This document shows, piece after piece, positions 10,955 to 23,996 of a stretch of 64,000 bases of DNA. Source of the stretch: Paraburkholderia sp. Tr-20389. Lineage in GTDB: Bacteria; Pseudomonadota; Gammaproteobacteria; Burkholderiales; Burkholderiaceae. Every line of letters begins with the position of its first letter. Within the stretch, counting starts at the first letter, position 1. Made by a program: the position numbers and the translations under genes. Location of the stretch: contig NZ_JAAGPD010000018.1 in assembly GCF_017104565.1 (NCBI RefSeq), positions 108,959 through 172,958 on the forward strand, written 5' to 3'. The notes beneath the pieces are model-generated. The model did not search any database. It saw only the letters and a list, made by a program, of their open reading frames with translations, and was not told the DNA's origin.

Positions 10955-12862
10955 ATGTTCATGACGCGGCGTGGTGCGCGGGCGAATCGCAAGGCGAGAG
11001 GTGTCAGACGGTATCGAGCCGTCACTGGCATTCGTCGTGCCGTCGTTGCCGGAATGGTGTTGCATGCATCGGCAGCGAGCGCTGCATCGCCGATGTGGCG
11101 CGCGGAAACCATGCACTACTTCGCGAGCAATACGCCGTTGCCCGATGTGCTGAAAGAGGTGGCGAGTGCAGGCGGGCTCCCGGTCGAGATCGCGCGTGGT
11201 GTGAAAGGGCCCGTCAACGGCGAGTTCGTCGAAGTGCCGGCGCGTGTGTTCGCCAGATTGATCGACGCATACGGCCTGGTCTGGTATTTCGACGGGCACA
11301 TGATTCACGTATCGCCCGCATCGGACAGCCGTAGCCGGACGATCCCGTTTTCTCCGATGACACGCGACCAGGTGGCCGGTTTGCTATCGAGTCTCGGTCT
11401 CAACGACAGTCATCTCCCAGTCCGCTATTCGGATACGACCGCCGTCGTGTCGGGGCCGTCGCAATTCGTCGATGCGATCTCCGACGCTGTTGCACAGGCG
11501 CAGCGGCAGGCCACGGTGACGCCCTCCGTCGACGACACCGAGATCCGCGTATTTCCGCTGCACTATGCGCAGGCACAGGACATCACGTACACGTCCGGCG
11601 GCCGGCCGCAGACCGTGCCCGGTGTCGCGTCGTTGTTGCGCAATCTCATGGCGGGCGTGCCGGCCACCGTGCCGGACAGAGAGAGTGTTGCGAGGCCGCG
11701 CAATCCGGCACGCCCTGCGCGAGGCGGTCCGCCGCCGCTTCCCGGATTGCGCGGCCTCGGTCTCGCGGATGCCTCGTCCGCATCCGACATCGACGCGCCA
11801 TTGCCGGATACAGAAACGATGCGTCTCGCCACGGCGTCGATACAACGCAATATCGTTGCCGATATTCGTACGAATTCGGTCGTCGTGTACGACGTGCCTT
11901 CGATGATGCCGAACTACGAGCGCACGATCGCGATGCTCGACAAGCCGCAGGATCTCGTCGAAATCACGGCGGTCGTCATCGACGTGTCGACAGATGCCGC
12001 GAGCGATCTGGGCATACGCTGGGGCGCCGGATCGAGGGGCGAGGGCGGCGCGTACGCGATGCTGAATTCCTCGCCCAGGACGCCCGATTCATTCATCGCT
12101 CCGGCCCTGTCGGGCCTCAACCTCGCGACGATGATCGGCAGCTCGGCCAATTACCTGTTCGCGAAGATTCACGCGCTCGAACAGAACGGCAAGGCCCACA
12201 TCCTGTCGCGTCCGCAGGTGCTGACGCTGAACAACTCGGAAGCGATTCTGTCCTCGCGCAACTCGGTGTATGTGCGTGTCGCGGGCAATCAGGACGTCGA
12301 TCTCTACAACGTCGATACGGGGCTGATATTGAAGGTGACGCCGACCGTCGAGCCGCTGTCCGACGGTACGCAAAACGTGCTGTTGAACGTGCAGATCGAC
12401 GATGGTGCATTCGATTCGTCGTTGACGGTCGACGGCATTCCCAAGGTCAACAATCATTCGATCGTGACACAAGCCGTTGTCGCCAACGGGGAAAGTCTGC
12501 TGCTTGGCGGATATCAGTACGAAAGCAGTCAGACATCGTCCTCGCAGGTCCCCGTGCTGGGCAATCTGCCCTATGTAGGCGCGTTGTTTCGCGACAGGCA
12601 GACCCAGGTCGAGCGTCTCGAACGACTCATCCTGATCACGCCGCGCATCAAGAAGGTGACGGGCCTCGCCGCGAAACAGGAAACGCTGGACGTGCCTTCG
12701 GCGGTCGTGCAACCCGCGCCAGCGTTCGCGGACAACGACGCGGCGAATCGGGCAATGATGCGTCAACGTGGGCCGACTGCGCCCGCCTGGAGCAGCGCGG
12801 TACCGCCGCTGCCGCCCGGCTTGCCGCCCGGTCCCGCGTCGACGAAGGGGGCGATCCGATGA
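10955..12862 (+). CDS. sctC: Type III secretion outer-membrane secretin SctC
   Basis: A 635-residue secretin forming the outer-membrane ring of the injectisome. It has a long basic start and signal sequence (cleavage about ASAASA), an SctC-type N0 domain (WRAETMHYFASNTPLPDVLKEVAS), N1/N3 repeats with the usual DTAVVSG and NIVADIRTNSVVVYDVP motifs, and a secretin core whose conserved blocks include ILSRPQVLTLNNSEAILSS, the VTPTV segment and the closing VPVLGNLPYVGALFR...LILITPRI. GGGGG 8 bases before the ATG at 10955 favours that start over ATGs at 10934 and 10949. A proline-rich tail follows the secretin core. It is first gene of the T3SS operon and overlaps sctD by 4 bases. Confidence 0.93.
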   Translation: MFMTRRGARANRKARGVRRYRAVTGIRRAVVAGMVLHASAASAASPMWRAETMHYFASNTPLPDVLKEVASAGGLPVEIARGVKGPVNGEFVEVPARVFARLIDAYGLVWYFDGHMIHVSPASDSRSRTIPFSPMTRDQVAGLLSSLGLNDSHLPVRYSDTTAVVSGPSQFVDAISDAVAQAQRQATVTPSVDDTEIRVFPLHYAQAQDITYTSGGRPQTVPGVASLLRNLMAGVPATVPDRESVARPRNPARPARGGPPPLPGLRGLGLADASSASDIDAPLPDTETMRLATASIQRNIVADIRTNSVVVYDVPSMMPNYERTIAMLDKPQDLVEITAVVIDVSTDAASDLGIRWGAGSRGEGGAYAMLNSSPRTPDSFIAPALSGLNLATMIGSSANYLFAKIHALEQNGKAHILSRPQVLTLNNSEAILSSRNSVYVRVAGNQDVDLYNVDTGLILKVTPTVEPLSDGTQNVLLNVQIDDGAFDSSLTVDGIPKVNNHSIVTQAVVANGESLLLGGYQYESSQTSSSQVPVLGNLPYVGALFRDRQTQVERLERLILITPRIKKVTGLAAKQETLDVPSAVVQPAPAFADNDAANRAMMRQRGPTAPAWSSAVPPLPPGLPPGPASTKGAIR

Positions 12863-13959
12863 GCGGGGGCGGAATCATTGCAGTGACGGGCGGCATTCAC
12901 GCGGGTGCAAGTGTGTTGATGTCCGACAGCCACGACCTGACGATAGGCAGCGGCGACGGCGACAGCCTGCTGCTCGTCGATGACGGCATCGTGCCGCAGC
13001 ATGTGACCATCTGCCTCGTCGGTGACAAGCTGAAGCTCGTCGCACATCACGACGGCGTCGCCGTATTCGGCTACGCATGGGCGCCGGGCAAGGCGACGCT
13101 GCTGAGAGCCGGGGCGTCCTTTACGATCGGCGACGCGCAATTCCAGTTCAGCGGACGCGATCCTCTGACGCAGGATGCCGTGCGCGACGCGGAACTCGCG
13201 TGGCTGCTGAGCCATGCGCCGCTAGCCTATGTTGCGCGCCGCTGGGCGCATGCATCGCGCGGCAGAAAGCTGTTGTTGATCACGGTGCTGGCCGGGACAG
13301 GCCTTGGATGGCTGTGGTCCATCTACGGCCCCCATGACGCCGGCCGCGCGATGCCGCAACTCGACGGCGCGTTTCGCTTCGTGACCGTCCATGAGGACGC
13401 GAAGACGCACGCATACGTCTACGAAGGCTACGTGACCAGCACGTCGGAGCTTGCCTGGCTGGCGGCGAATGCACGCCGTGACAACCGCATGCCGCTGATG
13501 CGCGTGAAGGTCGTCGATCAGATCAGGGAGCAACTCGCGGACTTTCTCCAGAAGTACTATCGCGACGCTCAGATCAAACCGGGCGTGACGGGCTCGTTTG
13601 CCGTCGTTCTCCCGGCCGTGGATTCGTACCTGCTGCCGGAGTCGTGGGACTACGGACGCATCGCGCGCCTCGCACGCGAATCGGTCAACGGATTGAGCAA
13701 TCTCGAGTTCGAGGGACACGCCGCGAGCAAGGGGCCGGTGCGCATACCGCTTGAGACGATCGGCATGAACCTCGTCCATTCGGCAAATGGCACGTGGCTC
13801 GTCAACGGGCAGGGGGAGCGTTATTTCAGCGGCGCACGTTTGCCGCTCGGCAAGATAAGGGGAATCTCCGATTGCACCGTGACGATCGAGCGCAGCGACG
13901 ACGGAACGCTATACGAGTTCTTCGTCGAGGGCGCCAGGAACGCGAGCCGCTGCAAATGA
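12859..13959 (+). CDS. sctD: Type III secretion inner-membrane ring protein SctD
   Basis: A 366-residue bitopic membrane protein. Residues 1-~95 form a FHA-like cytoplasmic domain (LTIGSGDGDSLLLVDDGIVPQHVTI). One transmembrane helix follows basic residues (GRKLLLITVLAGTGLGWLWSI, about 135-155), and the rest is periplasmic with the small ring-building repeats. This is the standard SctD/YscD plan, with a somewhat shorter periplasmic part than YscD. It begins inside the last codons of sctC (ATGA overlap), so it is translationally coupled. SctD forms the outer of the two inner-membrane rings around SctJ. Confidence 0.85.
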   Translation: MSGGGIIAVTGGIHAGASVLMSDSHDLTIGSGDGDSLLLVDDGIVPQHVTICLVGDKLKLVAHHDGVAVFGYAWAPGKATLLRAGASFTIGDAQFQFSGRDPLTQDAVRDAELAWLLSHAPLAYVARRWAHASRGRKLLLITVLAGTGLGWLWSIYGPHDAGRAMPQLDGAFRFVTVHEDAKTHAYVYEGYVTSTSELAWLAANARRDNRMPLMRVKVVDQIREQLADFLQKYYRDAQIKPGVTGSFAVVLPAVDSYLLPESWDYGRIARLARESVNGLSNLEFEGHAASKGPVRIPLETIGMNLVHSANGTWLVNGQGERYFSGARLPLGKIRGISDCTVTIERSDDGTLYEFFVEGARNASRCK

Positions 13960-14053
13960 GCGGGATGAACCGCGCGATCTCGATCGACAGTCGCCGCTAG
14001 TCAGGACAGGATCTGCCCGCCGGGTCTTCGCGTGCGTACCGGTGTGCGGTTGA

Positions 14054-23565: not shown

Positions 23566-23570
23566 CGCCG

Positions 23571-23996
23571 ATGAAGGACGCGAGGCAGATGCGTTTGTGG
23601 ACGCTGCTTGTCCAGGTGCGGCGGTTGAGGGTCGAGCGCAAGCGGCGTGTGTTGAATGCGGCGCGTGTTCGCGTCGAACGCGCTGCCGCCGATACCGCGC
23701 GGCAACGCGAGGCGATCGACGGGCACGATGCGAGGCGCGGCGGAATTCTCGATGCATGCACGACGGGAAACATCGCAGCCGCGCTATGGCGTACCGCCTT
23801 GCATCGGCACGATGACGAGCGACACACGCTCGACGATGCGTTGTCGGAGGCGTTGCACGCTGAGCAGGCTGCGCAGACTGAAGCAGCCAACGCGTCGCGT
23901 GCGTTGCAGCGGGAGATGTTGGGTGAGGACGACGCGCGAACCCGCGTGCGTCGTCTGAAGGCCGAGCAGTACGACGATGGCGATCCCGATGAATGA
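23571..23996 (+). CDS. sctO: Type III secretion stalk protein SctO (HrpB7/YscO-like)
   Basis: A 141-residue basic, almost wholly helical coiled-coil protein. Arg-rich stretches alternate with Ala- and Glu-rich ones (LRVERKRRVLNAARVRVERAA, then SEALHAEQAAQTEAANASR). This and the place right after sctN match SctO, the stalk inside the ATPase hexamer that also escorts chaperones. Sequence identity in this family is very low, so the call depends on length, helicity and position. It is the last gene of the operon; a terminator follows at 24063. No sctP gene is found after it, although SctP often comes next. Confidence 0.75.
   Translation: MKDARQMRLWTLLVQVRRLRVERKRRVLNAARVRVERAAADTARQREAIDGHDARRGGILDACTTGNIAAALWRTALHRHDDERHTLDDALSEALHAEQAAQTEAANASRALQREMLGEDDARTRVRRLKAEQYDDGDPDE

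What the first reader, a model, noticed from the sequence alone, without database searches (positions are those of the whole stretch)
10955..23996. A T3SS apparently built without the switch: truncated SctU, no SctP, 59-aa needle candidate
The operon contains sctC, D, I, J, K, L, Q, R, S, T, U, V, N and O with tight overlaps, but no visible gene for SctP (ruler/switch partner of the SctU domain), for a gatekeeper or for translocators. SctP and the SctU cytoplasmic domain work together, so their joint absence is coherent. The small protein in the needle position is unusually short. This could be a distinct T3SS lineage with simplified or alternative length and substrate control, perhaps secreting into the medium or against fungi or other microbes.
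Basis: inference. Interest (0 to 1): 0.85.

Follow-up and report, generated by a model that had tools for sequence, protein, structure and literature searches.

The report
A secretion needle without its switch
Soil Paraburkholderia carry a type III protein-secretion machine, already known as the Paraburkholderia Short Injectisome, in which the part thought to switch such machines from building themselves to exporting cargo appears to have been lost and kept lost, while a gene for a probably self-cutting candidate cargo stays beside it; this makes the need for the switch testable.

Summary
Operon 10934-23996 encodes SctC, D, I, J, K, L, Q, R, S, T, U, V, N and an SctO-like protein. SctU is 246 aa and stops before the NPTH autocleavage domain; no SctP lies nearby. 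The system is not a new lineage: it is the Paraburkholderia Short Injectisome (PSI; Wallner 2021), whose missing needle gene was already in print. Not seen in the papers I searched: the truncation is fixed. SctU is 246 aa in 36 of 36 PSI genomes of the genus and 247 aa in a deep branch, whereas 32 of 32 nearest non-PSI relatives read on into the domain. In 17 genomes whose only T3SS is PSI, FliK-type matches over cut-off are two per genome, in flagellar regions by position, and HpaP gives none. The 59-aa protein is real and conserved, but predicted as one helix; other PSI have about 87-144 aa there. A DUF1521 gene with the GDPH site of Ca2+-self-cleaving NopE-type proteins accompanies PSI: 32 of 37 PSI genomes by Pfam, 0 of 108 others; the other five carry a GDPH protein at the same place. 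Best reading: a switchless T3SS exporting filament and cargo as one class. No function was tested; gatekeeper and translocator searches were inconclusive.

The parts
10934..12862 (+). sctC, secretin (642 aa)
   Evidence: TIGR02516 E 5e-115, over cut-off
12859..13959 (+). sctD, inner-membrane ring (366 aa)
   Evidence: TIGR02500 E 2e-9, below cut-off; position; tblastn in 16 of 17 named PSI loci, the 17th cut by its contig end
14099..14278 (+). 59-aa protein in the needle (SctF) position
   Evidence: no family match; tblastn in 4 of 17 named PSI loci and in G011, G071, G008; dN/dS 0.022, one pair; AlphaFold2 single helix 17-57, pLDDT 66
14345..14677 (+). sctI, inner rod (110 aa)
   Evidence: position; alignment with PSI relatives, one of which matches T3SS_basalb_I at E 0.0014, below cut-off
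14677..15498 (+). sctJ, lipoprotein ring
   Evidence: TIGR02544 over cut-off
15495..16070 (+). sctK
   Evidence: HrpB4 E 1.3e-4, below cut-off; position
16064..16795 (+). sctL, stator
   Evidence: TIGR02499 E 5e-14, below cut-off
16792..17775 (+). sctQ, C-ring
   Evidence: FliMN_C over cut-off; TIGR02551 E 4e-23, below cut-off
17772..18419 (+). sctR
   Evidence: NF009438 over cut-off
18416..18691 (+). sctS
   Evidence: TIGR01403 over cut-off
18691..19416 (+). sctT
   Evidence: TIGR01401 E 6e-35, below cut-off
19413..20153 (+). sctU without the autocleavage (NPTH) domain, 246 aa
   Evidence: Bac_export_2 positions 2-240 of 335; same length in 36 of 36 PSI genomes of the genus
20155..22230 (+). 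sctV, export gate ring (691 aa, full length)
   Evidence: TIGR01399 positions 2-676 of 677, E 1e-181, below cut-off; 50-88% identity to PSI relatives
22234..23565 (+). sctN, ATPase
   Evidence: FliI/YscN family TIGR01026 over cut-off; best match TIGR02546 SctN, below cut-off
23571..23996 (+). sctO-like gene (141 aa)
   Evidence: position after sctN; tblastn in 12 of 17 named PSI loci; 35-62% identity in 8 chosen loci; no family match
24098..24964 (-). DUF1521 (MIIA, NopE-like) protein with GDPH site at residue 176: candidate cargo
   Evidence: PF07481 E 4e-37, over cut-off; linkage to PSI
25173..28649 (-). 1158-aa protein, second candidate cargo
   Evidence: no family match over cut-off and no PDB match; related stretches beside 8 of 17 named PSI loci at E below 0.01
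10374..10742 (-). ribbon-helix-helix protein, possible regulator
   Evidence: RHH_4 over cut-off; tblastn in 11 of 17 named PSI loci, some cut by the locus end, and in the deep-branch locus

Best explanation
This is the Paraburkholderia Short Injectisome (PSI), and PSI is a type III secretion system that has lost its substrate switch. Shown: its SctU keeps the part that aligns with the transmembrane region and the start of the linker, and ends, at a fixed point about 15 residues before relatives have NPTH; no recognisable SctP goes with it. Inferred: SctU now acts only as the clamp of the SctRST gate, so the machine never changes from early to late substrates; the inner rod, the short filament protein and the cargo leave as one substrate class chosen at SctV and the cytoplasmic sorting parts; filament length is set by subunit supply, or there is hardly a filament. 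Inferred: the main cargo is the GDPH (DUF1521-type) protein, exported unfolded at low cytoplasmic Ca2+, which then folds and cuts itself in the Ca2+ of the outside or of a host.
For: SctU is 246 aa in 36 of 36 PSI genomes of the genus and 247 aa in the deep branch G044; an ATG follows one base after the stop in 30 of 30 loci read, so no decayed remnant lies between. dN/dS is 0.10 for sctU and 0.048 for its last 40 codons (one pair). 32 of 32 nearest non-PSI SctU or FlhB genes read on into the domain. In the 17 PSI-only genomes PF01312 finds only a full FlhB, the PSI SctU and a lone C-domain; the lone domain is as common without PSI (20 of 20). FliK-type and HpaP searches leave no SctP for PSI. 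In Xanthomonas the HrcU C-domain binds the rod protein HrpB2 and HpaC but not the tested pilus, translocon and effector proteins (PMC2427183, passages), so losing it need not stop cargo export. The SctU transmembrane part and loop form the gate clamp (PMC7064499, passages). DUF1521: 32 of 37 PSI genomes against 0 of 108 others; the other five carry GDPH proteins past sctN on the opposite strand.
Against: No secretion, structure or expression was tested. FlhB/SctU is described as essential for all T3SS secretion, and work recalled from the field holds that losing its C-domain blocks export. A replacement switch with no sequence likeness cannot be excluded. Gatekeeper and translocator searches had no positive control. 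That the GDPH protein is exported by PSI rests on linkage and on relatives of other bacteria; three of the five diverged GDPH proteins do not match a profile of the DUF1521 ones, though all five match each other. Three DUF1521 genes may be damaged (split in G011; an inner stop in the matches of G004 and G079). The 59-aa protein is not shown to form a filament.
Confidence: 0.6

Rival explanations
1. PSI has a switch, but an unrecognised protein does the work of the SctU C-domain and SctP, for example a diverged gene elsewhere in the genome or a changed SctV or SctO.
For: PSI has lasted through the genus with purifying selection in the genes tested, so a regulated machine is plausible; SctO, SctI and the filament protein are very diverged here. 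PF01312, PF02120 and PF09483 only find relatives by sequence.
Against: In the window clade the operon has no unassigned gene besides the 59-aa one; no match to the domain over cut-off outside full FlhB/SctU genes and the lone domain, and no FliK-type or HpaP match left for PSI.
Confidence: 0.2
2. The flagellar lone FlhB C-domain protein (FhlX-like, name recalled), with flagellar FliK, serves PSI in trans.
For: 36 of 36 PSI genomes hold this lone domain; in 16 of the 17 PSI-only genomes it lies within about 0.5 kb of a FliK-type gene (the 17th is split over contigs).
Against: It is equally present in 20 of 20 genomes without PSI; in the own genome it lies with fliK-like, fliT, fliS, fliE and fliF genes (names by reading; the fliK-like one also by PF02120); flagella and PSI would share one switch.
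Confidence: 0.12
3. PSI is a decaying relic that no longer secretes.
For: Missing domain, missing needle chaperone candidates in the window clade, DUF1521 gene split in two pieces in G011 and inner stops in two other matches.
Against: Fixed SctU length in 36 of 36 genomes, dN/dS 0.02-0.10 in the three genes tested of one pair, same gene order in a deep branch.
Confidence: 0.04

Closest known systems
Paraburkholderia Short Injectisome, PSI (Wallner et al. 2021, PMC8565462; parts 1-4 of 7 read and a term search)
   Same: Mostly Paraburkholderia, 12-14 kb, 14-16 genes, no recognisable sctF; P. fungorum, stated there to have only a PSI, falls in the same clade
   Different: The paper lists SctU as a core component; its main text has no 'SctP' and no 'truncat' (supplements not seen); it says sctO is absent, whereas a gene sits in its place here
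Hrp-2-like T3SS (HrcU, HpaC/HpaP)
   Same: Same core genes
   Different: HrcU has the self-cleaving C-domain and an HpaC partner in Xanthomonas; PSI has neither; no PIP-box in the operon
NopE1/NopE2 and the Vibrio coralliilyticus MIIA protein (PMC6506597; passages)
   Same: DUF1521 domain and GDPH site; the Vibrio gene lies in a T3SS cluster
   Different: Ca2+ cleavage is shown there, not here. One Bradyrhizobium T3SS read as a control has a full-length SctU, 345 aa; it was not checked whether that record also holds a NopE gene
Myxococcus needleless T3SS* (recalled, not looked up)
   Same: A T3SS said to lack needle parts
   Different: Not compared here

Membership tests
PSI | falls with known PSI systems (P. 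fungorum) in SctN and SctV trees | tested here: met
   25 of 25 PSI rows one side of a branch, 100/99; no named reference of other T3SS classes was in the trees
PSI | short operon of 12-14 kb and 14-16 genes | tested here: met
   13.1 kb, 15 genes
PSI | no recognisable sctF | tested here: met
   no family match for the 59-aa protein
PSI | no sctO | tested here: inconclusive
   a gene lies in the sctO place but matches no SctO model
Canonical T3SS with SctU/SctP switch | SctU C-domain with NPTH | tested here: not met
   absent from the PSI SctU in 37 of 37 PSI genomes
Canonical T3SS with SctU/SctP switch | SctP | tested here: not met
   17 PSI-only genomes: two PF02120 matches over cut-off each, in 16 of 17 within about 0.5 and 11 kb of the lone flagellar domain, and no PF09483 match over cut-off
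Canonical injectisome | gatekeeper and translocators | tested here: inconclusive
   0 of 18 over cut-off for PF07201, PF05819, PF04888, without a positive control
MIIA (DUF1521) self-cleaving protein | domain and GDPH site | tested here: met
MIIA (DUF1521) self-cleaving protein | Ca2+-dependent cleavage and T3 export | not testable with these tools
   needs protein and secretion assays

The most novel reading that the evidence does not exclude
In PSI, self-cleavage at an X-Pro bond has moved from the gate (NPTH of SctU) to the cargo (GDPH protein): the machine has no internal switch, and the cut cargo itself plugs, ends or resets secretion outside.
Probability: 0.06. Interest if true: 0.92.

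Novelty: new variant of a known kind. Interest (0 to 1): 0.74.

Why it matters
The SctU C-domain and SctP are described as the switch of type III secretion (PMC10333785 and PMC7064499, passages). A lineage that has kept the machine and lost the switch is a natural deletion experiment: it can show whether the domain is needed for export at all or only for ordering it. The linkage also names a candidate cargo for a system for which I saw no effector described.

Tried and rejected
Moved C-domain: the lone FlhB C-domain at C58 lies in a flagellar cluster and is as common without PSI, so no special tie to PSI. Nonsense mutation or sequencing error: rejected by fixed length over 36 genomes and the next ATG one base on. 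SctP elsewhere in the genome: HpaP at C19 belongs to another T3SS by position. Hrp-2-type regulation: the 2 PIP-box matches in the window lie at 49568 and 54438, outside the operon, and 94 of 100 shuffles have at least 2. PDB sequence searches for the filament, 59-aa, sctO and 1158-aa proteins gave nothing usable. AlphaFold2 of the 122-aa needle candidate of a relative gave two helices at low confidence, pLDDT 55; no fold search was run. PSI on plasmids: 294 records match SctU, all below 60% identity. A profile of 19 DUF1521 proteins matched 2 of the 5 diverged GDPH proteins (E 1e-8 and 6e-5) and not the other three; a second round added none. Rows dropped: of 19 non-PSI loci offered to the trees, 13 gave SctN and 8 gave SctV rows long enough.
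Full report
WHAT IS THERE. The window lies in a 9.0 Mb genome, of Paraburkholderia by its nearest named relatives (inference). Operon 10934-23996 carries sctC, sctD, a 59-aa gene, sctI, J, K, L, Q, R, S, T, U, V, N and an sctO-like gene, with short overlaps. SctU has 246 residues and matches only positions 2-240 of the 335-position family model; sctV starts one base after its stop. Downstream, on the other strand, are a DUF1521 protein and a 1158-aa protein. The genome has other Bac_export_2 genes: full ones on C60, C19 and C102, and a lone C-domain on C58.

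IT IS PSI. Wallner et al. 2021 (PMC8565462; parts 1 to 4 of 7 and a term search) named the Paraburkholderia Short Injectisome: 12-14 kb, 14-16 genes, no sctF found. They state that P. fungorum has only this type. Two P. fungorum loci and LB400 fall with the window: 25 of 25 PSI rows form one side of a branch with 100/99 support in both trees. Mitter 2013 already noted the missing needle gene in PsJN, and Angus 2014 a fourth type of T3SS cluster in PsJN and LB400 (passages). The lineage is therefore known.

THE TRUNCATION IS A TRAIT OF THE LINEAGE. A search of 145 genomes of the genus gave 36 with a PSI-type SctU at E below 1e-69; the next hit lies at 3.7e-33. SctU is 246 aa in 30 of 30 loci read and in the 6 others read: 36 of 36, the window's own included. 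The next hit, G044, is a deep PSI with the same gene order, SctV at 50% identity and an SctU of 247 aa ending at the same point. Other weak hits were not read one by one for further deep PSI. Outside PSI, 29 of 29 nearest relatives in the order read on past the PSI end point: one has no NPTH-like site, one reads NPTR, several NPEH, NPVH or NPQH, and one is cut by its contig end after the site; 3 of 3 new ones in the phylum sample have NPTH. Both SctU and FlhB are among them, and they are the nearest only, not a census. In the samples of 399 genomes of the order and 398 of the phylum, no genome but the own reached PSI-like scores. Against the closest relative, dN/dS is 0.10 for sctU, 0.048 for its last 40 codons and 0.022 for the 59-aa gene (one pair).

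NO PARTNER DOMAIN. In 36 of 36 PSI genomes PF01312 finds a full FlhB, the PSI SctU and a lone C-domain. In 17 of them these are the only matches, so PSI is their only T3SS by this test. The lone domain is present in 20 of 20 chosen genomes without PSI and in the own genome lies with flagellar genes. FliK-type matches over cut-off number exactly two in each of the 17 PSI-only genomes; in 16 of 17 one lies within about 0.5 kb and the other about 10-11 kb from the lone domain. The own genome has a third at C19, which is also its only HpaP match. HpaP is over cut-off in 0 of 17 PSI-only genomes; one weaker match in G079 falls on the FliK-type gene by the lone domain. Searches for HrpJ, NolX and SseC gave nothing over cut-off in 18 genomes, but also nothing in the own genome, which holds two further T3SS, nor over cut-off in the controls, so they prove little.

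THE NEEDLE QUESTION. Between sctD and sctI, the fungorum-clade loci read have three genes: about 90-104 aa, 106-124 aa and a TPR protein of about 154-174 aa; the middle one reaches the needle family at E 0.02, below cut-off, in one of three tested and is predicted as two helices at low confidence. G079 has a 144-aa protein there. The humisilvae clade has one gene of about 87 aa, and the window clade one of 59-69 aa where the start was read, predicted as a single helix. So the 59-aa protein is the positional counterpart, reduced, and is not shown to be a needle.

A LINKED, PROBABLY SELF-CUTTING PROTEIN. PF07481 hits 32 of 145 genomes: 31 of the 36 PSI genomes and G044; counting G044 as PSI, 32 of 37 against 0 of 108, Fisher p 3e-27 (related genomes are not independent, so the p value overstates). 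Of 24 held PSI loci, 19 gave a hit and all 19 have GDPH, as has the window; of the 5 without a hit, one (G079) ends before its gene. Not every one of the 32 genes was read. The five PSI genomes without a Pfam hit each carry a GDPH protein just past sctN, on the opposite strand. These five are related to one another along their length; two match a profile of the DUF1521 proteins at E 1e-8 and 6e-5, three do not, so for these three descent from the DUF1521 gene is likely, through the other two, but not shown directly. DUF1521 is a Ca2+-induced autocleavage domain of T3-secreted NopE1/NopE2 and of a Vibrio protein encoded in a T3SS cluster (PMC6506597, passages).

MECHANISM. In known systems the SctU transmembrane part and loop clamp the gate, while the C-domain with SctP orders substrates (passages). 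In Xanthomonas the C-domain binds the rod protein and HpaC but not the tested pilus, translocon and effector proteins (passages). Losing both partners together therefore removes ordering and need not remove cargo export. I infer a one-class T3SS whose main cargo is the GDPH protein. Shown: the anatomy, its conservation and the linkage. Inferred: export, order and cutting.

NOVELTY. Searches of the held library for truncated SctU, PSI, PsJN's needle and DUF1521 in Paraburkholderia showed no listed paper that, by title and start of abstract or by the passages read, reports the truncation or the DUF1521 link. Searches listed only part of their hits (15 of 44, 15 of 20, 12 of 118, 20 of 358). Most subscription journals are missing and no preprints are held.

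Noticed in passing
39261-39381 and 34939-34986, - strand: A Guanidine-I and a Guanidine-II riboswitch lie about 4 kb apart.
   Followed up: no
L036 7811-8137 (own C58): A lone FlhB C-domain gene lies beside a second fliK-like gene; such a lone domain is in 56 of 56 genomes tested.
   Followed up: partly
23571-23996: A gene in the sctO place, although the PSI paper calls sctO absent.
   Followed up: partly
25173-28649, - strand: 1158-aa protein without family match over cut-off, with related stretches beside 8 of 17 named PSI loci.
   Followed up: partly
10374-10742, - strand: Ribbon-helix-helix protein that lies near PSI in 11 of 17 named loci and in the deep-branch locus L059.
   Followed up: no
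L106 (G011): The DUF1521 match of the closest relative is split into two pieces.
   Followed up: no
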